The translations under genes were made by a program, and so were the position numbers. Shown here one piece after another: positions 12,371-23,451 of a stretch of 40,558 bases of DNA. Each line of letters begins with the position of its first letter. Positions within the stretch are counted from its first letter, which is position 1. The stretch comes from a virus, in IMG/VR virus record IMGVR_UViG_3300027987_000054, positions 1 to 40,558 of that record. The stretch is one strand, 5' to 3'. Under the pieces are notes generated by a model. The model worked only from the letters and a program-made list of their open reading frames with translations. It made no database searches and was not told the origin of the DNA.

Positions 12371-13624
12371 ATGAGCTTCCTGACGTGGCTCCTGGGGACC
12401 ACTCCGAACACGGCCGGTGTTGTGGCCAACGCGAACGATCCGGCTCCGCCGCCGGGCACTGTCGGGCCTCCCGACATCAACTTCGGCGATCCCGACATGG
12501 TCGACGTCAGTGCGCTGACCAACCTGGAGACGCGCCAGCTGCCGTGGATTCAGCCCAGTGCCTGGTCCGGCTATCCCGAGTCGTGGTCGACCCCGAACTG
12601 GGGTCAGCAGGCCGGGATCAACAAGCTCATCGACGTCGCCTGGGCGTGCATCGACCTCAACTCCTCGGTGCTGAGCAGCATGCCGATCTACCGGATGAAG
12701 AACGGCCGGATCATCGAGCCGACCAGTTGGATGAAGAATCCCGATCCCGACATCTACACCTGCTGGCAGGAGTTCGCCAAACAGCTGTTCTGGGACTACA
12801 TGCTCGGCGAGGCGTTCATCCTGCCGATGGCGACCAATTCCGACGGGTATCCGATCCGGTTCAGGGTCGTTCCGCCGTGGTTGATCAGCGTGGAGATGCG
12901 CGGGGGGACGCGCGAGTACAAGCTCGGATCGACCGACGTCACCGGTGAGATCCTGCACATCCGCTACTCGTCCACCACCACCGACGCCCGCGGTCACGGT
13001 CCGCTGGAGCAGGCCGGTGCCCGTCAGGTCACCGTCGGGCTGTTGCAGCGTTACACCCAGAACCTCGCCGAGACCGGCGGAATACCGCTGTACTGGATGG
13101 GCCTGGACCGCAAGATCACCCAGTCCGAGGGTGTCGACCTGCTGGACCGTTGGATCGAGTCGCGCACCAAGTACGCCGGGCATCCCGCACTGGTAGCCGG
13201 TGGTGCCACCCTCAACCAGGCGAAGTCGATGAGTGCCCAGGACCTGACCCTGATGGAGCTGACCCAGTTCAACGAGGCGCGCATCGCCATTCTCTGTGGT
13301 GTGCCGCCGTTCCTGGTCGGACTTCCCGGTGCCACCGGTTCGCTGACCTACTCCAACATCGAGCAGCTGTTCGGGTTCCACGATCGCTCGAGTCTGCGCC
13401 CGAAGGCCAATGCGGTGATGTCGTCGCTGGACGGCTGGTCGCTTCCGTCGACGCAGACGCTGGAACTGAACCGCGACGACTACACCCGACCGGGCCTCAA
13501 GGACCGCGCCCAGGCGTTCAAGGTGCTCATCGAGGCGGGGATTCTCACCGTTGACGAGGCCCGGGCGATGGAACGGCTGTACGGCGAATCGGCGGCGATC
13601 CGCCTGACCGGCGGCGAAGATTGA
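12371..13624 (+). CDS. Portal protein (HK97 type)
   Basis: A 417-residue product forming the dodecameric ring at the head vertex through which DNA passes. Family signs include the N-terminal region with AWACIDLNSSVLSSMPIYR, the wing and stem region with ILHIRYSS, HGPLEQAGARQVTVGLL, and the clip/crown part with LTQFNEARIAILCGVPPFLVG, then SNIEQLFGFHDRSSLRP. Length and order (after terminase, before protease) are standard for HK97-like siphoviruses. The ATG at 12371 follows the palindrome; a clear ribosome site is not obvious. Its stop shares one base with the next start. Confidence 0.93.
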   Translation: MSFLTWLLGTTPNTAGVVANANDPAPPPGTVGPPDINFGDPDMVDVSALTNLETRQLPWIQPSAWSGYPESWSTPNWGQQAGINKLIDVAWACIDLNSSVLSSMPIYRMKNGRIIEPTSWMKNPDPDIYTCWQEFAKQLFWDYMLGEAFILPMATNSDGYPIRFRVVPPWLISVEMRGGTREYKLGSTDVTGEILHIRYSSTTTDARGHGPLEQAGARQVTVGLLQRYTQNLAETGGIPLYWMGLDRKITQSEGVDLLDRWIESRTKYAGHPALVAGGATLNQAKSMSAQDLTLMELTQFNEARIAILCGVPPFLVGLPGATGSLTYSNIEQLFGFHDRSSLRPKANAVMSSLDGWSLPSTQTLELNRDDYTRPGLKDRAQAFKVLIEAGILTVDEARAMERLYGESAAIRLTGGED

Positions 13625-14853
13625 TGCTGGGGGTTGCGATCAGCACCCGCAATCGACGGGCGCTGTTCGAGCGCACCGTGCGGCAGTGGCGTAGATGGTT
13701 GCCGCCGAACTCCGTACTGGTCGTGGTCGATGATGCTTCCGACGTCCCGCTGCGCGGGGAGACGATGTTGCTTCCGCACGGCTGTGTGGTCAGGCTGATC
13801 TTCAATCCGTACCGCAAGGGCGTGGCCGCGACCAAGAACCTGGGCATCGCCGCCCTGATGGATGCAGGCTGCGATCACCTGTTCCTGGTTGACGACGATG
13901 TGTTTCCGGTGTCGGACCGATGGTGGCGTCCCTACGTCGATTCGCCGGAGCCACACCTGTCGTTCCAGCGGCCCGAGAAGTCGGGGTCTGGTGATGACCT
14001 GCACTTCGCCGTCGGGTTCCCCAGGGGCTACATGCTCTACGCCGAGCGCAGGGTCATCGACGCGGTCGGCGGGATGGACCCGGCCTACGGGGCGTGGGGC
14101 GGTGAGCACGTCGAATGGCAGATGCGCATCCACGACGCCGGCCTGACCAGGTGGCCCTACGCCGATGTTCGCGGGTCGGGTGCGCTGTGGAATGCCATCA
14201 CCACCAGGTCGACCGTCAACTACCAGGAGCGCAAGCGGATGCTCGCCGCGACCGGGATTCAATGGCAGAAACCCCGGCCGCGGTTCGTCGCCTATCGGGA
14301 AGGACACGGAATGCAGGACTACAGCCTCGGGCCGGAGATCGGACCATTGGAGCCGTGGCATGTGTTGAGGCACGTGCTCGACCTGGCCCCCTCTGGGGTG
14401 GCTGTGGAATTCGGCGTGGGAGAAGGAAAGTCGACGCGGGTGATCGCCGAGCGGATGCCGGTGTTCGGGTTCGACTCCGGTGAGGGGCTGCCCGAGGAGT
14501 GGCGGAGTGGATACCCGAAAGGCTCACTGGCGTGGGACATTCCACAGATCCCCAACACGACGGTCACCAAGGGTTGGTTCGATGACACGCTGCCCGGGTA
14601 CGACTTCGCGGCACTCGGGCATATCGGGCTGGTCCACTTCGACGCCGATCTCTACTCCTCGACGCGAACGGCGCTGAAGTACATCGGCCCCTTCCTGCAG
14701 CCGGGAACCTACTGCGTGTTCGATGAGTACCACGGTTACATCGGCGACACCGACCATGAGCAGCGGGCCTGGCGGGAGTTCGCCGAGGACACCAAGATCG
14801 GCTGGACGGTCGTCGGGCACGGCGACCAGCAGTGGGCGATCAGGATCGGATGA
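13624..14853 (+). CDS. Glycosyltransferase family 2 fused to TylF-like methyltransferase
   Basis: A 409-residue two-domain enzyme. Residues 1-220 are a GT-A glycosyltransferase: VAISTRNRRALFERT, VVVDDASD, GVAATKNLGIAALMD, the metal-binding LFLVDDDVFP, and GGMDPAYGAWGGEHVEW. Residues about 235-409 are a class I methyltransferase of the macrocin O-methyltransferase (TylF) type: VAVEFGVGEGKST for SAM, FGFDSGEGLPEEW, HFDADLYSSTRTAL and VFDEYHGY with likely metal-binding Asp residues. A single protein could add a sugar and methylate it. Start ATG 13624 overlaps the portal stop. It heads a five-gene island unrelated to head assembly. Confidence 0.88.
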   Translation: MLGVAISTRNRRALFERTVRQWRRWLPPNSVLVVVDDASDVPLRGETMLLPHGCVVRLIFNPYRKGVAATKNLGIAALMDAGCDHLFLVDDDVFPVSDRWWRPYVDSPEPHLSFQRPEKSGSGDDLHFAVGFPRGYMLYAERRVIDAVGGMDPAYGAWGGEHVEWQMRIHDAGLTRWPYADVRGSGALWNAITTRSTVNYQERKRMLAATGIQWQKPRPRFVAYREGHGMQDYSLGPEIGPLEPWHVLRHVLDLAPSGVAVEFGVGEGKSTRVIAERMPVFGFDSGEGLPEEWRSGYPKGSLAWDIPQIPNTTVTKGWFDDTLPGYDFAALGHIGLVHFDADLYSSTRTALKYIGPFLQPGTYCVFDEYHGYIGDTDHEQRAWREFAEDTKIGWTVVGHGDQQWAIRIG

Positions 14854-15479
14854 TGCCCGAACCGAAGTTCGTCATCGTCGGCACCGGCCGCTCCGGGTCC
14901 ACCTACATCTCCCAGCTGCTCACCAGGTCCGGCATTCCCTGCGGTGGAGAGTCCTGGTGGAGTCCGAGTGGCCGTCATCGCGAAGTCGGGCCGTGGAGTG
15001 ACGAGAAGATCGTCGGCGACTCGTCCTGTTGTGCCCTGGCCCAGGGCCTCGACGGCTACGAGGGCATCGTCTTCCACCAGATCCGGCATCCCCTCGACGT
15101 GATTCTGTCCTATATCCGTGCGCCCGTTCAGGACCCGCACCTGAGCATCTTTCGCAGACTGATCCCCGATGCCGACCCGGCGGACATTCCCGGCTTCGCC
15201 ATGCGGTTCTGGCTGGCGTGCGCGGAGACCGCCGAGTTGTACACCACCGGCGGCTGGTGGCGTCTCGATCAGATCGACTCCATGCTCATCCACCAGATCG
15301 GCAACCTGATCGGTATGCCGGTCGCTGATGATGCCGTCGAGGCCGCTTTCGCCAACACGCCGGTCACCGTCCACTACGAGCAGCGTGAGCCCAGGTTGAC
15401 CTGGGAGAGCCTGGAGCGCCACGACCTAGAGGTGGCCGAGCAGATCAGAAAGGTCGCAGACCGCTATGGCTTCGAATGA
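14850..15479 (+). CDS. PAPS-dependent sulfotransferase-like protein
   Basis: A 209-residue product. The N terminus FVIVGTGRSGSTYISQLL matches the 5'-phosphosulfate loop of sulfotransferases, and HQIRHPLDVILSYI matches the 3'-phosphate-binding Arg and Ser motif. Together these indicate use of 3'-phosphoadenylylsulfate to sulfate a hydroxyl, here probably a sugar made by the neighbouring glycosyltransferases. It overlaps the preceding gene as ATGA (14850-14853; a second ATG follows directly) and the next gene by 14 bp. Sulfotransferases are uncommon in phage structural operons. Non-catalytic P-loop relatives cannot be ruled out. Confidence 0.8.
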   Translation: MMPEPKFVIVGTGRSGSTYISQLLTRSGIPCGGESWWSPSGRHREVGPWSDEKIVGDSSCCALAQGLDGYEGIVFHQIRHPLDVILSYIRAPVQDPHLSIFRRLIPDADPADIPGFAMRFWLACAETAELYTTGGWWRLDQIDSMLIHQIGNLIGMPVADDAVEAAFANTPVTVHYEQREPRLTWESLERHDLEVAEQIRKVADRYGFE

Positions 15480-16332
15480 GCGCCCGGTCGTCATGTTCAT
15501 GTTCGCCGGCCGACGCGGCAACATGGAACTCAACCTGCCGATGATCGAGCGCATCCTGCGGCAGTACCCGCAGGTGCAGTTCCACGTCTGGAACCTGACG
15601 CGCAACAACCACGACAGCAGTTACCTGAAGACGATCAAGATGTCGGACGTCTTCGTGTATCACACACATGCCGGTCCGCGTGCCTTCCAGCGGCTGCCGC
15701 GGGTGTGGCGGCACTACACGAACCCGCGGTTCAGGGATTGCCTGTTCGTCAAGGTCGATGATGACGTGGTGTTCCTGGAGACCGAGCGGTTCGGTGATTT
15801 CCTGGACGCCGTCGAGAACAACCCCGAAACGGTGGTCAGTGCCGACGTCGTGAACAACGGGGCCTGCACCCCGCTTACGCCGGGACTCTGGGAGGGCTTC
15901 TCCGCGCTGGACATCCCACTGCTCGACGTGCACATGAGCAACGAGTACGCGCACATGGCGCACGGGTACATGTTCGATCACTGGCAGGAGATGATCGGTC
16001 AGCCGGTGCGCCTGGTCGACACCGAGGACTGGTTGTCGATCAACTTCATCGGCCTGCACCATTCGCTGCTGTGCCGGATCTCCGACTGGGTCGGCCGCCG
16101 GTCTCCGAAGTTGATCGCCGGTCGGGAGTGGACGCCGCGTCACCGGGTCGGTGACGAGGGTGCGGCCAACATGTATCCCCGTGCCATCGTCCAGGGGTTC
16201 ACCGTCGCCCATCTCGGGTTCGGGCCGCAGGACCTGACGCCCGAACAGGAGACGGCGTTGCGTGCCGAGTATGCGGTGATCGGGGATAAGTATCTGGCGG
16301 GTGTCCGGCAGCCGGACAGGGCGCTGCCGTGA
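15466..16332 (+). CDS. GT-A-type glycosyltransferase-like protein
   Basis: A 288-residue product. It opens with a Rossmann-like strand VVMFMFAGRRGNMELNL, and at about residue 100 has CLFVKVDDDVVFLE, a DxD-type metal and nucleotide-sugar site. Later EDWLSINFIGLHHSLLC and HRVGDEGAANMYPR probably build the acceptor side. I cannot name the GT family; the hydrophobic-VDDD pattern suggests GT-A fold. Start ATG 15466 lies within the end of the sulfotransferase gene, and the next gene starts as GTGA on its stop. Most likely role: a sugar added to a virion protein or glycan. Confidence 0.7.
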   Translation: MASNERPVVMFMFAGRRGNMELNLPMIERILRQYPQVQFHVWNLTRNNHDSSYLKTIKMSDVFVYHTHAGPRAFQRLPRVWRHYTNPRFRDCLFVKVDDDVVFLETERFGDFLDAVENNPETVVSADVVNNGACTPLTPGLWEGFSALDIPLLDVHMSNEYAHMAHGYMFDHWQEMIGQPVRLVDTEDWLSINFIGLHHSLLCRISDWVGRRSPKLIAGREWTPRHRVGDEGAANMYPRAIVQGFTVAHLGFGPQDLTPEQETALRAEYAVIGDKYLAGVRQPDRALP

Positions 16333-17021
16333 CCACCGCGGTGGTGATCCCCTTCAGGGACCGCGGGCTCGACCCGTTGAGGCGGGCCAACCTGACGCGG
16401 GTGGTCGACCAGTGGCTCTCCTACGGATGCGAACCGATCGTCATCGACGACGGCCGCACCGGCGATGCCCAGTTCAATCGCAGTGCCGCCTACAACCGTG
16501 GGGTCGCCCAGACCGATGCCGACACGCTGATCTTCGCCGAGTCCGACATGATCATCGACCGGGGGCAGGTCGACCGCGCCGTCAGGCTGGCCGTCGACCC
16601 CGGCATGGTGATCCCGTTCAGCTGGTTCATGGCGCTGTCCGAGGAGGACTCGCGGTGGGTGCGGGTACACATGACCGATCCTGTCGACTGCAAGGCATCC
16701 CCGGTGAAGGGGCATCGCGGCAGTATCGGTGCCGTCAACGTCATGTCGCGCGAGACGTACGAGCTGGTCGGCGGGTACGACGAGACGTTCGAGGGTGCCT
16801 GGTTCGATGACGATGCGATGAAGATCGCCTTCGAGGTGTGTGCTGGACCCATTCGGTGGGTCGAGGGATCGGCGTACCACCTGTACCACCTGTCCGGCGG
16901 GAAGGGCACGCACCTGTCCGGACCGGACCGTGCTGCCACCGCCCGTAACCGGCTGCGATACCGCCTGTATCAGCGGGCGAAGACGCCGGATCAGATCAGG
17001 GCGTTGACGGCACGCGCATGA
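16329..17021 (+). CDS. Glycosyltransferase, galactosyltransferase-like (GT2/GT7 type)
   Basis: A 230-residue product from GTG 16329. Motifs are AVVIPFRDRGL at the N terminus, PIVIDDGRTGDAQFNRSAAYN (a truncated galactosyltransferase N-terminal pattern with FNRSAAYNRG), TLIFAESDMII as the DxD equivalent, and GGYDETFEGAWFDDDAM, like the acceptor/metal region of polypeptide-GalNAc and beta-4-galactosyltransferases. It is coupled to both neighbours by 4-bp overlaps. It likely extends the glycan started by the other enzymes in the island. Donor sugar unknown. Confidence 0.8.
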   Translation: MTTAVVIPFRDRGLDPLRRANLTRVVDQWLSYGCEPIVIDDGRTGDAQFNRSAAYNRGVAQTDADTLIFAESDMIIDRGQVDRAVRLAVDPGMVIPFSWFMALSEEDSRWVRVHMTDPVDCKASPVKGHRGSIGAVNVMSRETYELVGGYDETFEGAWFDDDAMKIAFEVCAGPIRWVEGSAYHLYHLSGGKGTHLSGPDRAATARNRLRYRLYQRAKTPDQIRALTARA

Positions 17022-17641
17022 TCTCCATCGGGGTGGTCGCCGACGCCCGTCGCGGCGAGATGGGCACCAGGCTTGCCCGCCAGGTCGAGGCCGACTACCT
17101 CAGTGTCGACTCCGGATCGCTGGGCTGCACCGGGAACCACTCCGCAGTGTGGAAATGGCACGCCGACCATCCCGCCGACTGGAACGTCGTCCTGGAGGAG
17201 GATGCCCTTCCGGTCGACCGCTTCCGTGATCAGCTGACCGCTGCCCTGGCAGTCGCACCGGCGTCGATCGTGTCGCTCTATCTGGGGCGCGGCTACATCG
17301 AGGATCGCCGGATGGAGGCGCTCCTGCACAGCGCCGACACCACCGGGTCGCACTGGGTCGTGGCCCACGGCCGCATTCTGCACGCGGTGGCTCTCGCCGT
17401 GCGCGGTGATCTGCTTCCGTCGATGACCACACGCTTTCCGCTGCGGCGCACCCAACAGATCGACCGGGTGCTGTCGCAGTGGGCTCGCAGCCACGGCCAC
17501 CGGGTGGCCTACAGTGTGCCGTCGCTGGTCGACCACGCCGACGAGCCGAGTCTGGTCACCCGGTACCGGCGGCTGCCCCGAAAAGCATGGCGCATTGGTA
17601 GCCGCGATGACTGGAGTGACCGGATGATACGCATGGTATAA
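17018..17641 (+). CDS. GT25-like glycosyltransferase
   Basis: A 207-residue product overlapping the previous stop as ATGA. The stretch SLGCTGNHSAVWKWHADHP followed by NVVLEEDALPVDRF resembles the GT25 family used in lipooligosaccharide synthesis, where a GC..SH..W segment precedes an ED(D/A) metal site. The middle (APASIVSLYLGRGYIED) and DHADEPSLVTRYRR also fit. It is the last gene of the glycan island; a 45-base gap with its own AAGGAG ribosome site separates it from the protease gene. Family assignment by motif only. Confidence 0.7.
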   Translation: MISIGVVADARRGEMGTRLARQVEADYLSVDSGSLGCTGNHSAVWKWHADHPADWNVVLEEDALPVDRFRDQLTAALAVAPASIVSLYLGRGYIEDRRMEALLHSADTTGSHWVVAHGRILHAVALAVRGDLLPSMTTRFPLRRTQQIDRVLSQWARSHGHRVAYSVPSLVDHADEPSLVTRYRRLPRKAWRIGSRDDWSDRMIRMV

Positions 17642-17686
17642 GTCCTTGCTGCGGTAATCTGTCAACAGTTCTCGTAAGGAGAAAAG

Positions 17687-18571
17687 ATGGCTGACGACGT
17701 CACTTATGCCAATACGCTGACAGATCAGCGGAAAGCGCCGATCGAGATTCGGTCGGCTGCTATCGACAAGATCGACGCCCTCGAGCGGATCGTGACGGTC
17801 ATCGCTGTTCCCTACGAGCAGTCGACGCCCGTCCCGTTCCGTGGGGAGGTCTGGGAAGAGGTCGTTCAGCGGGGGGCGTTCGACGGTATCGAGACGAGCA
17901 CTCATACCTACCGGGTCAACCGAGACCACGACAAGCGCCGCCTGGTGGGCAAGATCGTCAACTACTATCCCGAGCGCAATGACGGTCTGATCGTGGACGC
18001 CTACATCTCGGAAACCGACCTGGGCAACGAGACGTTGCAGCTGGCCAGGGACGGCATTCTGGGCGGATCGGTGGGCATGGCGGTGCGGCCCTCCGACCAA
18101 CTGCTCGACAAGCGCAGCGGCACCCGCATGCGCCGTATCCGGCGGGCGTTCCTGGACCACCTGGCCCTCGTTCCCGATCCGGCGTATCAGGGCGCGGAGG
18201 TGCTTTCTGTGCGTGACAGCGACAACGGGGATGAGCCACCCGAGCCGACGATTCACACCCCACGGATGGATCAGTTCGCCGATGACCCCATTCTGTCGTG
18301 GATGTTCGAGCGGGCTGCCACGCTCGATGAGCGCGCCGAGGACTCGTCGAAGCCGTACGGCGATGTCGCCTACGCCGATCCTGGCTACCAGGACGACAAC
18401 AAGAAGCGGTATCCGATCGACACCGAGGAGCACGTCAGGGCGGCGTGGTCCTACATCAACCAGGGCGACAATTCCTCCAAGTACAGCTCTGAACAGGTGG
18501 CGTCGATCAAGGCGCGCATCAAGTCTGCAGCGAAGAAGTTCGGGATAGAGATCTCCGATAGCAGCAAGTGA
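17687..18571 (+). CDS. Prohead (capsid maturation) protease with C-terminal extension
   Basis: A 294-residue product. Residues 20-180 are an HK97-type U35 peptidase: AVPYEQSTPVPFRGEVWEE, catalytic His81 in NRDHDKR, and Ser128 in GGSVGMAV, then FLDHLALVPDPAY. It cleaves the scaffold or delta domain of the capsid protein during maturation. Residues about 225-294 form an extra domain (SSKPYGDVAYADPGYQD, IDTEEHVRAAWSYINQ, SIKARIKSAAKKFGI), seen fused to phage proteases of actinobacteriophages, perhaps acting as the scaffold. AAGGAG lies just before the ATG. Confidence 0.92.
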   Translation: MADDVTYANTLTDQRKAPIEIRSAAIDKIDALERIVTVIAVPYEQSTPVPFRGEVWEEVVQRGAFDGIETSTHTYRVNRDHDKRRLVGKIVNYYPERNDGLIVDAYISETDLGNETLQLARDGILGGSVGMAVRPSDQLLDKRSGTRMRRIRRAFLDHLALVPDPAYQGAEVLSVRDSDNGDEPPEPTIHTPRMDQFADDPILSWMFERAATLDERAEDSSKPYGDVAYADPGYQDDNKKRYPIDTEEHVRAAWSYINQGDNSSKYSSEQVASIKARIKSAAKKFGIEISDSSK

Positions 18572-18608
18572 CTCTGTTACCCTCGTACTCAACTCGCCCG
18601 TAGGGGTT

Positions 18609-18673
18609 GGGTCGCTGGCCGAGAGGGCTTCTCACTCCGCCTGAAGAGGCGCGGGTCGCTGGCCGAGAGGGCT
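18609..18673 (+). repeat. Two 21-bp direct repeats in the capsid gene leader
   Basis: The 21 bases at 18609-18629 (beginning GGGTCGCTGG, ending CGAGAGGGCT) recur exactly at 18653-18673, a 44-base period. Each copy can form a small GGCC-GAGAG-GGCT hairpin. They lie in the 135-base gap between protease and major capsid genes, the latter having TGGAGGG before its ATG. The placement suggests an RNA element, for instance for processing, stability or translation of capsid mRNA. Confidence 0.75.
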
Positions 18674-18706
18674 CGATTTCGTCAACTCTCAAACTGGAGG
18701 GCCATT

Positions 18707-19939
18707 ATGGGCAACGCATCGTCCGGCGACGAAATGATCCGTCGCCTCGAAACCGAGCTTCGTGAGAAGGAGACCCTCATCCGGGGGATCTTCGAACGCG
18801 CCAATGCCGGCACCCGCGACATCAACGACGAAGAGTCCGAGATGGTGGCGGAGACCCGCAGCCGCATGGAGAAGATCAAGTCTCAGCTGGAACAGGTCGA
18901 GGACGTCAACCGCATCGCCTTCGAGACGCGCAACCGCGCCAAGGAGGTCGACCAGGCGATCAGCACGATGAAGGGCCGTCCGCAGATGGCCGATGTCGAG
19001 TACCGCTCGGCAGGTGCCTACATGCTGGACATGTGGCAGTCCTCGCAGGGCAGCCGGGAGGCCACCGAACGTCTCGACATCTACATGCGTGCCGCCGAGC
19101 ACCAGAAGACCGGCGACTCGCTGGGCGTGATCCCCGATCCGATCGTGGGTCCGGTCATCGACTTCATCGACGCGGCCCGTCCGCTGGTGTCGACGATGGG
19201 CACGATGCCCTTGACCAACGCGACGTTCTACCGGCCCTACGTCAGCCAGCATCCGACGGTGGGCCTGCAGGGAACCGATGGTTCGGCGACCTACGAGAAG
19301 TCGGAACTCGACAGCCAGAAGATGGTGATCGAGCGCAAGACCGTCACCGCGAAGACCTACGGCGGCTACGTCAACGTCTCGCGGCAGGCGATCGACTTCT
19401 CCAACCCGTCGGCCCTGGACCTGGTGGTCAACGGACTCGGCCAGCAGTACGCCATCGAGACGGAGGGTGCGGTCGGCGATGCGTTGGCTGCCACTACCAC
19501 CGCCGCGGTGTCCTACGGTGCGGTGCCGACCGACGACCTGGTGTCTGCGGCCGTGTGGGATGCGGTGGCCACCTGCTACTCGGTGACCAAGGGTGCGGGG
19601 CGGGTACTGCTCGCCGTGGCTCCCGACGTGCTCCAGGTGTTCGGTCCGCTGTTCCCGCCGATCAGCCCGCGCGACGCGCAGTCGCCTGGGTTCATGGCGG
19701 GGCAGTTCGCACAGGGGCAGATGGGCACGATCGGTGCGGTGCCCTGCGTGATGTCGGCGGGGCTGGGTGCCGGTGAGGCATACGTGTTCTCGACGGCGGC
19801 GCTCGAGTTGTTCGAGCAGCGGGTCGGGACGCTCCAGGTGGTCGAGCCTTCGGTGTTTGGCCTCCAGGTCGCCTACGCCGGGTACTTCTCGACGCTGACG
19901 GTCAACGACGACGCCATCGTCCCGCTGGTGCAGTCCTGA
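18707..19939 (+). CDS. Major capsid protein (HK97 fold)
   Basis: A 410-residue product. Residues 1-95 are a charged coiled coil (MIRRLETELREKETLIRG, RSRMEKIKSQLEQVEDVN) like the HK97 delta/scaffold domain removed by the protease. The remaining part is the HK97-fold capsid: DSLGVIPDPIVGPVIDFID, the E-loop region YEKSELDSQKMVIERKT, TYGGYVNVSRQAIDFSNP, and the C-terminal domain ending AYAGYFSTLTVNDDAIVPL. It forms the icosahedral shell. TGGAGGG lies nine bases before the ATG. The next gene starts on its stop. Confidence 0.95.
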   Translation: MGNASSGDEMIRRLETELREKETLIRGIFERANAGTRDINDEESEMVAETRSRMEKIKSQLEQVEDVNRIAFETRNRAKEVDQAISTMKGRPQMADVEYRSAGAYMLDMWQSSQGSREATERLDIYMRAAEHQKTGDSLGVIPDPIVGPVIDFIDAARPLVSTMGTMPLTNATFYRPYVSQHPTVGLQGTDGSATYEKSELDSQKMVIERKTVTAKTYGGYVNVSRQAIDFSNPSALDLVVNGLGQQYAIETEGAVGDALAATTTAAVSYGAVPTDDLVSAAVWDAVATCYSVTKGAGRVLLAVAPDVLQVFGPLFPPISPRDAQSPGFMAGQFAQGQMGTIGAVPCVMSAGLGAGEAYVFSTAALELFEQRVGTLQVVEPSVFGLQVAYAGYFSTLTVNDDAIVPLVQS

Positions 19940-22635: not shown

Positions 22636-23451
22636 ATGACCATTCCAGCAACAGGCACTTCGTGGCGCGCAGGCGGATTCGAGGATGTCGATTCTCGGTT
22701 CAACACCCGCGGCGGTCTGGCGGCGATCCTGATCCGCGACAACCGTGGAGCCGAGACCAACATCAGCCCGTGGGCTGCGGGCAATCCCCCGACGCGGAAC
22801 TGGTCGCCGTTCGCCGAGGACGGCACGCCGCGCGACGACCTGTTCGCCCACATCCTCGTCGACGGCGACTGGATCACCAACCCCGAGGCGAACGAGGGCT
22901 TCGAGCTGATCGGCGCGCTCACCGAGGACGGCGGTCCGGAGCGGGCACCCGATATCACGAACGACAACCAGATGATCCTGCAGTCGAACTTCCCGTTCGA
23001 TTCGGACCTGACCGGTGAGGGTCTGACGATCAACTTCACCGGCGTAGAGACGGTCAAGCCGCTCATGAAGCGCCTGCGGATGAACCTGGCGCTCGCCGAC
23101 TCCAACGGCGTGTCGATCGTGGAGGACCCGGGTACCGAGGACTTCAACATCGGCAAGCCGATCGACAACGAGGCCCCCGAGTACCAGATCATCCTGATGT
23201 TCGCCCGGCGCAAGCGGGGACAGTTCATGTACACCGCCGAGGGCTACTCGCTGTGCAAGCTGACCGACATCGGTTCGTTCCGCCGGTCCAAGACCGATCC
23301 GGATGCCGGCTCGCTCGGCTACACGGTGCTGCCCGACCCGTACTTCGTCGGCAAGGACCCCAACGACCCGACGAGCAACGAGCTCATCCCGCTGTACTAC
23401 TGCGAGTGGGTTGACGGCGAGTCGTGGACCAGCATTAAGGGTGCCAGCTAG
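22636..23451 (+). CDS. Major tail (tube) protein
   Basis: A 271-residue product with a beta-rich body, for example NTRGGLAAILIRDNRGAE, FAHILVDGDWITNPEANEG, NDNQMILQSNFPFDSDLTGE, GLTINFTGVETVKPLM, and the ending SLGYTVLPDPYFVG. Position after the tail terminator and the NFTG...KP pattern match major tail proteins of actinobacteriophage siphoviruses. It forms the tail tube. GAGGAAAGG lies before the ATG. Its TAG abuts the reverse-strand membrane protein gene, whose stop starts one base later. Confidence 0.88.
   Translation: MTIPATGTSWRAGGFEDVDSRFNTRGGLAAILIRDNRGAETNISPWAAGNPPTRNWSPFAEDGTPRDDLFAHILVDGDWITNPEANEGFELIGALTEDGGPERAPDITNDNQMILQSNFPFDSDLTGEGLTINFTGVETVKPLMKRLRMNLALADSNGVSIVEDPGTEDFNIGKPIDNEAPEYQIILMFARRKRGQFMYTAEGYSLCKLTDIGSFRRSKTDPDAGSLGYTVLPDPYFVGKDPNDPTSNELIPLYYCEWVDGESWTSIKGAS

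What the first reader, a model, noticed from the sequence alone, without database searches (positions are those of the whole stretch)
13624..17641. Five-gene glycan decoration island between portal and prohead protease
A GT2-methyltransferase fusion, a sulfotransferase-like protein and three further glycosyltransferase-like proteins form one translationally coupled run in the middle of head genes. Virion glycosylation is known in some actinobacteriophages. A set able to add sugar, methyl and sulfate groups would predict a sulfated, methylated glycan on a virion protein, which I do not know to be described.
Basis: partly seen in the sequence, partly recalled or inferred. Interest (0 to 1): 0.78.

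Follow-up and report, generated by a model that had tools for sequence, protein, structure and literature searches.

The report
Phage capsid-glycan island with added sulfotransferase
A mycobacteriophage-like virus carries, among its head genes, a known kind of sugar-decoration gene set plus an extra enzyme predicted to add sulfate, hinting that some phages coat their particles with sulfated sugars, which I did not find described.

Summary
The five-gene run is real. Four genes form the glycosylation locus known from cluster O (Corndog-type) mycobacteriophages: a methyltransferase (here fused to a GT2 domain) and three glycosyltransferases, at the same place between portal and prohead protease. 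That part is known; papers say such enzymes modify capsid and tail-tube subunits.

The new part is gene 2 (14853-15479). It has no PHROG or NCBIfam match, only a sub-threshold Pfam match, and no tblastn relative in 50,697 phage records (E 0.01). Distant relatives exist on 25 other viral contigs and in two actinobacterial genomes. A model from 22 aligned sequences, gene 2 included (pLDDT 90.8), has the PAPS-sulfotransferase fold; all 50 listed VIA rows are sulfotransferases. The PAPS-site Arg/Ser and the presumed catalytic Glu are kept, but gene 2 alone lacks the His before that Glu and a Val-Pro pair.

In at least 7 of those 25 contigs (five groups) the sulfotransferase also lies among head genes, with glycosyl- and/or methyltransferase neighbours; one is gene 2's nearest relative, beside a homologue of gene 4.

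Best reading: an enzyme that sulfates the virion glycan. Activity and substrate are inferred, not shown. New variant of a known kind.

The parts
13624..14853 (+). g1: GT2 glycosyltransferase domain (about residues 1-225) fused to a TylF/Methyltransf_24 O-methyltransferase domain (about 230-409)
   Evidence: Pfam PF00535 E 1e-6, PF05711 6.2e-10, PF13578 1.7e-8; phrog_8858 1.1e-83, phrog_6608 7.3e-74; full-length fusion relative in prophiGD102-1 at 55%
14853..15479 (+). g2: predicted PAPS-dependent sulfotransferase, 208 aa
   Evidence: AlphaFold2 model pLDDT 90.8; 50 of 50 listed VIA rows are sulfotransferases, best Z 13.8; family profile hits SULT2A8 chains at E 5-6e-5
14880..14903 (+). g2 residues 10-17 (GTGRSGST), 5'-phosphosulfate-binding-type loop; R13 invariant (motif name recalled)
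   Evidence: alignment A7; aligned to the TPST Arg loop
14949..14951 (+). g2 residue E33, predicted catalytic Glu (22 of 22 in A7); the preceding His of the other 21 is Gly in g2
   Evidence: TPST catalytic Glu per PMC5562738 (passage)
15084..15110 (+). g2 residues 78-86 (R.P.....S), 3'-phosphate-binding-type motif; R78, P80 and S86 invariant (motif name recalled)
   Evidence: alignment A7
15466..16332 (+). g3: glycosyltransferase (phrog_4447)
   Evidence: phrog_4447 E 2.4e-121
16329..17021 (+). g4: GT2/galactosyltransferase-like (phrog_1721), GTG start
   Evidence: PF00535 E 4.6e-5; phrog_1721 E 1.7e-100
17018..17641 (+). g5: glucosyltransferase (phrog_854), weakly GT25-like
   Evidence: phrog_854 E 5e-68; PF01755 E 0.02, below cut-off
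12371..13624 (+). portal protein, upstream border
   Evidence: PF04860 E 1.1e-35
17687..18571 (+). prohead protease with DUF6582 C-terminus, downstream border
   Evidence: PF04586 5.6e-8, PF20223 1.6e-24
18707..19939 (+). major capsid protein; C-terminal Ser (IVPLVQS), a candidate acceptor
   Evidence: phrog_2263 3.3e-81; terminal Ser also in Catdawg and in the four other loci aligned
22636..23451 (+). major tail subunit; C-terminal Ser (IKGAS), a candidate acceptor
   Evidence: 87% identical to Catdawg gp47, which also ends in Ser

Best explanation
The island builds a short glycan on virion proteins, most likely the C-termini of the major capsid and tail-tube subunits. The GT2 domain of g1 and g3-g5 assemble the sugars from host nucleotide sugars, the C-terminal domain of g1 O-methylates one, and g2 transfers sulfate from host PAPS to a hydroxyl of that glycan, leaving negatively charged, methyl-capped sugars on the particle. 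Shown: gene order, domain families, the sulfotransferase fold and PAPS-site residues of g2, and recurrence of a similar pairing in other phage groups. Inferred: catalytic activity, glycan as substrate, virion as location, and any benefit (shielding, charge, adsorption).
For: Same-place locus in cluster O phages: Catdawg portal-MT-GT-GT-GT-protease. Twelve loci have a strong portal match and then g4 in the same order, none of them with g2, so g2 looks like an insert in a known locus. g2 model and fold. Family profile to PDB sulfotransferases at E 5e-5; 9 of 22 members match Sulfotransfer_3 at E 0.01, best 1.3e-8. R13, E33, S58, R78, P80 and S86 are invariant in 22. Head-gene context of relatives: L193 TerL-GT2(weak)-MT-ST-portal; L197 MCP-adaptor-GT(phrog_1721)-ST; L187/L191 MCP...NT-like-ST-MT-GT-like-g5-like; L176/L179 protease-MCP...ST fusion...epimerase-ST-NT-like-GT2; L166 MCP...ST...MT-epimerase-like. 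g2 and the L197 ST pair at 99/96. Cellular relatives: a GT2-ST fusion near FliS and FliD genes, and an ST in a polysaccharide locus.
Against: g2 alone among 25 members has Gly for the His before the Glu. In A7 it also alone departs at V62 and P63 and has Cys59 where the rest have Trp or Tyr; it departs at T16 (with L197) and W123 (with L166). It may be altered or inactive. g2 itself is below Pfam's cut-off. Foldseek TM-scores are modest (query-normalised 0.43-0.58 for the nine matches at E 0.001). g2 is known from one phage species only: two further records carry it at 100% protein identity, and the one compared by DNA is 100% identical over 9,128 bases. No other same-place island has it. APS kinase (PF01583) was sought in the window and not found, so PAPS would have to come from the host. 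No biochemical data.
Confidence: 0.6

Rival explanations
1. g2 is a protein sulfotransferase that sulfates a tyrosine (or other residue) of a virion protein directly, not the glycan.
For: Among the closest solved folds are tyrosylprotein sulfotransferases (Z 12.3-13.2; the top rows, two polyketide-pathway sulfotransferase domains, have 13.7-13.8 and are tied with the best of them), and E33 aligns with their catalytic Glu.
Against: The head-gene relatives have glycosyltransferase and/or methyltransferase neighbours, and relatives are fused to a GT2 domain (L158) or a LicD-like domain (L181).
Confidence: 0.12
2. The island, or g2 alone, modifies host envelope glycans (for example to block superinfection or change adsorption) and not the virion.
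For: The acceptor cannot be read from sequence; related islands in other phages lie outside the portal-protease interval (L011; L015).
Against: Placed between portal and protease; published statements that such enzymes modify capsid and tail tube; sulfotransferases in head modules of five further groups.
Confidence: 0.13
3. g2 has lost or changed its activity: a decaying or repurposed member, bearing no sulfate chemistry.
For: It alone lacks the family's His before the Glu and the Val62-Pro63 pair.
Against: Intact, coding-like, overlapping its neighbours; the PAPS-site Arg/Ser and the Glu are kept; tyrosylprotein sulfotransferases have Glu, not His, at the aligned place.
Confidence: 0.15

Closest known systems
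Glycosylation locus of cluster O mycobacteriophages (Corndog, Catdawg; O-methyltransferase plus three glycosyltransferases)
   Same: Same place between portal and capsid maturation protease, same order; Catdawg identity 56% (methyltransferase domain), 55% (g3), 70% (g4)
   Different: Here the methyltransferase is fused to an N-terminal GT2 domain, and a sulfotransferase gene sits between it and g3
GT2-methyltransferase fusion of a M. abscessus prophage (prophiGD102-1 gp73)
   Same: Full-length relative of g1, 55% over residues 2-408, followed by g3- and g4-like genes
   Different: Island lies before the terminase genes, not between portal and protease; no sulfotransferase
Sulfotransferase genes reported in other phages (for example Sulfotransfer_3 in OM43-phage genomes and a Synechococcus phage, PMC10580990, passages; sulfotransferase-named viral proteins)
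   Same: Same enzyme superfamily
   Different: That paper says the function in phages 'remains unclear', and the passages seen do not tie it to a virion glycan locus; g2 has no tblastn hit in the 50,697 phage records at E 0.01
Tyrosylprotein sulfotransferases and polyketide-pathway (CurM, OLS) sulfotransferase domains
   Same: Fold (Z 12.3-13.8, 181-191 residues aligned, rmsd 3.5-3.8), PAPS-site Arg and catalytic Glu positions
   Different: 14-18% identity in these rows; unrelated context

Membership tests
Cluster O-type virion glycosylation locus | Located between portal and prohead/capsid maturation protease | tested here: met
Cluster O-type virion glycosylation locus | O-methyltransferase followed by the three glycosyltransferases of phrog_4447, phrog_1721 and phrog_854 | tested here: met
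   identities; g2 interrupts the order
Cluster O-type virion glycosylation locus | Glycan present on capsid and tail-tube subunits | not testable with these tools
   needs virions; only the conserved C-terminal Ser of both subunits was seen
PAPS-dependent sulfotransferase superfamily (fold) | Sulfotransferase fold | tested here: met
   model pLDDT 90.8; Foldseek ranks 1-25 are sulfotransferases or PAP-bound retinol dehydratase, E 2e-4 to 1.5e-2, TM-scores modest; VIA 50 of 50 listed rows
PAPS-dependent sulfotransferase superfamily (fold) | 5'-PSB loop with basic residue and 3'-PB Arg/Ser | tested here: met
   R13, R78 and S86 invariant in 22 sequences; motif names recalled
PAPS-dependent sulfotransferase superfamily (fold) | Catalytic base | tested here: inconclusive
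   E33 kept and aligned to TPST catalytic Glu, but the neighbouring His of 24 of 25 members is Gly in g2
PAPS-dependent sulfotransferase superfamily (fold) | Sulfate transfer from PAPS | not testable with these tools
   needs an enzyme assay
Pfam PF13469 Sulfotransfer_3 | Score over the gathering cut-off (27 bits) | tested here: not met
   g2 scores 20.6; so g2 is not filed in this Pfam family

The most novel reading that the evidence does not exclude
Sulfation is a recurrent, unnoticed arm of phage virion glycosylation. Divergent sulfotransferases sit in glycosyl- and methyltransferase islands inside the head-gene modules of at least six groups of high-GC phages, so that some phages wear sulfated, methylated glycans, a charged coat for which I found no described phage precedent. 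One cellular branch of the same family would do the same to flagella.
Probability: 0.5. Interest if true: 0.78.

Novelty: new variant of a known kind. Interest (0 to 1): 0.62.

Why it matters
Published passages say that phage capsid glycosylation weakens antibody responses or recognition (PMC11600133; PMC12691614). A sulfate would add fixed negative charge to the particle and could change adsorption, stability and recognition. The locus gives a gene-level, testable prediction (+80 Da on virion glycopeptides), and the 22-sequence alignment gives a profile with which such islands can be sought in other phages.

Tried and rejected
Single-sequence fold of g2: useless (pLDDT 35). phmmer of g2 against PDB: no match. 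First family profile (7 sequences) against PDB: best E only 0.024. 22-sequence profile against PDB at E up to 1: 33 of 50 rows are sulfotransferases by my count (4gox and Teg14 counted), the first 11 rows among them; the other 17 are syntaxins, designed helical proteins, gp41 pieces and the like. Fold search in viral models: one match at E 0.001, an unnamed protein; several lower ones are named sulfotransferases.

tblastn of g2 at E up to 10: three weak partial matches in phages and three in plasmids; the Streptomyces match lies opposite an annotated gene and was dropped as a shadow frame, though phmmer gave it 5e-4 in a small local set; the Rhodococcus one was dropped as well. Genome-contig scan with g2: 263 pattern stretches, no relative. 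301 genomes of one family (that of a Mycobacterium genome): 46 with a match at E 0.1, best 5e-4, none full length. 396 genomes of a phylum (centre a Nocardioides genome): 74 with a match at E 0.1, two full length; the 3-sequence profile, on what looks like the same 396, found four at 1e-3, two of them N-terminal pieces only. tblastn of four other family members (L193, L187, L165, L166) against phages at E 0.001: no match in any. A last viral scan with A8 gave 16 relatives, no new contig. Pattern-based scans miss relatives without the pattern, so 25 contigs are a lower bound; some are near-copies of each other.

Only some neighbours were put to family libraries. L183:401-1096 gave no PHROG. L176:4101-4997, L176:5947-6600, L187:6310-7041, L187:7025-7747, L187:4201-4995, L166:4143-4973 and L166:5587-6252 gave no Pfam match, so calling them GT-like or NT-like rests on local phmmer links or on the eye. 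18 of the 25 contigs were not shown to be head modules. The tree has 4 strong inner branches of 22; head-module members are clustered on it (3 changes against 7.0 for shuffles), and one origin is not ruled out. Rows dropped as copies or near-copies before A7 and the tree: L174, L180, L186, L189, L191, L195, L196. In the count of twelve same-order loci, L083, L089 and L091 were left out (weak portal matches of 30-47 bits further upstream), as were the own-species loci.

Freeman et al. 2023 could not be read. Literature on sulfotransferases in phages: searches (listings; 15 of 2,186 seen, 15 of 127), with passages from six of the listed papers, none of which describes virion or glycan sulfation by a phage. 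Glycosylation searches: 8, 15, 24. The library is open-access papers only.
Full report
Observation. The five ORFs exist at the stated places on the + strand, overlap their upstream neighbours at every border (read from the sequence), and have third-position GC like the flanking genes. They lie between the portal and the prohead protease, with the major capsid protein next. The window is a 40,558-base virus record, shorter than the about 70-kb cluster O genomes (record lengths), so probably a fragment.

What four of the genes are. g1 has a GT2 domain and a TylF/Methyltransf_24 domain; g3, g4 and g5 belong to phrog_4447, phrog_1721 and phrog_854, annotated as sugar transferases. blastn of 13000-19000 finds 162 records, all Mycobacterium phages, 159 of them at 60-80% identity. 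Catdawg has portal-methyltransferase-GT-GT-GT-protease. A scan with g4 relatives found 95 viral loci, of which the best 80 were kept. In these and the phage loci the transferases recur in varying sets, with or without a methyltransferase or the GT2-methyltransferase fusion. Twelve loci besides the window's own species have a strong portal match and then g4 in cluster O order (L003, L021, L023-L029, L033, L035, L053); nine of them also reach the protease, the other three end before it. None of the twelve has a g2-like gene; L024 lacks g3, and L025, L026 and L029 lack the methyltransferase. g2 appears only in records of the window's own species, of which the one compared is 100% identical over 9,128 bases and is not independent evidence.

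What is known of such loci. The 2015 cluster O paper noted the four enzymes, found them in infected cells and not in virions, and proposed methyl and glycan modification of the capsid (PMC4351075, passages). [quoted passage not shown] 2023 (PMC11600133, passages), and that glycans were seen at the C-termini (PMC12619734, passages). The 2023 paper itself was not held. In the window the major capsid protein and the major tail subunit both end in Ser. So do Catdawg's and the capsid proteins of the four other loci aligned (L020, L023, L027, L053). This fits O-linked C-terminal glycans (the O-link is recalled).

What g2 is. Alone it is nearly invisible: PF13469 at 20.6 bits under a cut-off of 27, no PHROG, no NCBIfam, no phage record at tblastn E 0.01. 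Two full-length relatives were found among 396 genomes of one phylum: L157 (31% in the alignment) and L158 (28%). The alignment then led to viral relatives: 25 viral contigs besides the window's species. In 22 aligned sequences R13, E33, S58, R78, P80 and S86 are invariant. The 22-sequence profile matches solved sulfotransferases at E 5e-5; among the 22, nine match Sulfotransfer_3 at E 0.01, the best at 1.3e-8, and four Sulfotransfer_1. The AlphaFold2 model has pLDDT 90.8 and pTM 0.88. Foldseek's best PDB matches are sulfotransferases (E 2e-4, with modest TM-scores), and all 50 rows listed by VIA are sulfotransferases, best Z 13.8 with 181 residues aligned at 3.6 A. E33 aligns with the second Glu of the TPST CGEE stretch; PMC5562738 names R79 and E100 of TPST1 among the catalytic residues (passage). 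That the aligned Glu is E100 itself follows from the recalled sequence numbering. Against this, g2 alone among 25 members has Gly for the His before the Glu; in A7 it alone departs at V62 and P63 and has Cys59, and it departs at T16 together with L197 and at W123 together with L166.

Where its relatives live. Seven of the 25 contigs, in five groups (near-copies pooled), place the sulfotransferase among head genes, shown by PHROGs for structural genes and by local phmmer on longer stretches. L193: terminase (5e-36), GT2 (weak, E 0.0025), Methyltransf_24 (4e-6), sulfotransferase, portal (1.8e-140). L197: major head protein (5e-40), head-tail adaptor, a galactosyl transferase of phrog_1721 (1.3e-24), sulfotransferase. 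L187 and L191: major head protein (1e-127), a nucleotidyltransferase-like gene, sulfotransferase, rhamnosyl O-methyltransferase (RMNT_CmcI, 1.5e-33), a GT-like gene and a g5 homologue (2e-11). L176 and L179: head protease, major head protein, a sulfotransferase fused behind a domain that looks GT-like by eye only, an epimerase, a second sulfotransferase, an NTP-transferase-like gene and a GT2 (2.3e-5). L166: major head protein (3e-33), a gene related to that fused domain, sulfotransferase, a methyltransferase (1.4e-6) and an epimerase-like gene. L166 and L176 share several relatives, so the groups are not all fully separate. The other 18 contigs were not shown to be head modules; some are large-phage sugar loci (L165 with GT2, radical SAM, epimerase and a Sulfotransfer_4 gene; L168 with UDP-galactopyranose mutase). 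g2 and the L197 sequence form a supported pair (99/96), but most deep branches are open.

Cellular relatives. In one actinobacterial genome the domain is the C-terminus of a 912-residue protein with a GT2 domain, near FliS and FliD genes; in the other it lies in a polysaccharide locus with a sugar transferase, a PglD-like gene, a group-1 glycosyltransferase and a polysaccharide deacetylase. Both fit a glycan-directed enzyme.

How it most likely works. Shown: families, fold, active-site residues, gene order, recurrence. Inferred: that g1 and g3-g5 build a methylated glycan on capsid and tail-tube C-termini, as stated for their relatives, and that g2 sulfates it from host PAPS (APS kinase was not found in the window; other PAPS enzymes were not sought). 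Confidence 0.6 for the whole statement; higher (about 0.85, my estimate) for sulfotransferase ancestry and fold alone.

Novelty. The island itself is known. The sulfotransferase within it, and its recurrence in head modules of other phages, I did not find in print within searches (listings, and passages of six listed papers). Sulfotransferase genes in phages as such are known, with function 'unclear' (PMC10580990, passages).

Noticed in passing
L158:6787-9525: Actinobacterial GT2-sulfotransferase fusion protein of 912 aa near FliS and FliD genes: suggests a sulfated flagellin glycan.
   Followed up: partly
L176 / L204 and L179 / L210: Phage head-gene island with two sulfotransferases, an epimerase, an NTP-transferase-like gene and a GT2 right after protease and major capsid genes.
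   Followed up: partly
L165:1875-11093: 398-kb phage contig with a sugar locus holding two GT2 genes, a methyltransferase, radical SAM, two kinds of sulfotransferase and an epimerase, plus rmlC/rmlD-like genes by eye.
   Followed up: partly
L181:4986-6239: Sulfotransferase-family domain fused to a LicD-like domain (E 9.7e-5) in a phage contig.
   Followed up: no
L029:3804-4040: Small glutaredoxin-like ORF (by eye) between g4- and g5-like genes of a cluster O-like island.
   Followed up: no
L024:5643-5978: A 111-aa ORF of unknown kind stands where g3 would be in a cluster O-like island.
   Followed up: no
L021:2602-3273: HNH-endonuclease-like ORF (by eye) between portal and the GT2-methyltransferase fusion.
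   Followed up: no
L013:2482-6605: Phage Pound (Omegavirus) has annotated serine/threonine kinase and UDP-glucose dehydrogenase genes among the glycosyltransferases near its major capsid gene.
   Followed up: no
window:17687-18571: The prohead protease carries a C-terminal DUF6582 domain (E 1.6e-24).
   Followed up: no
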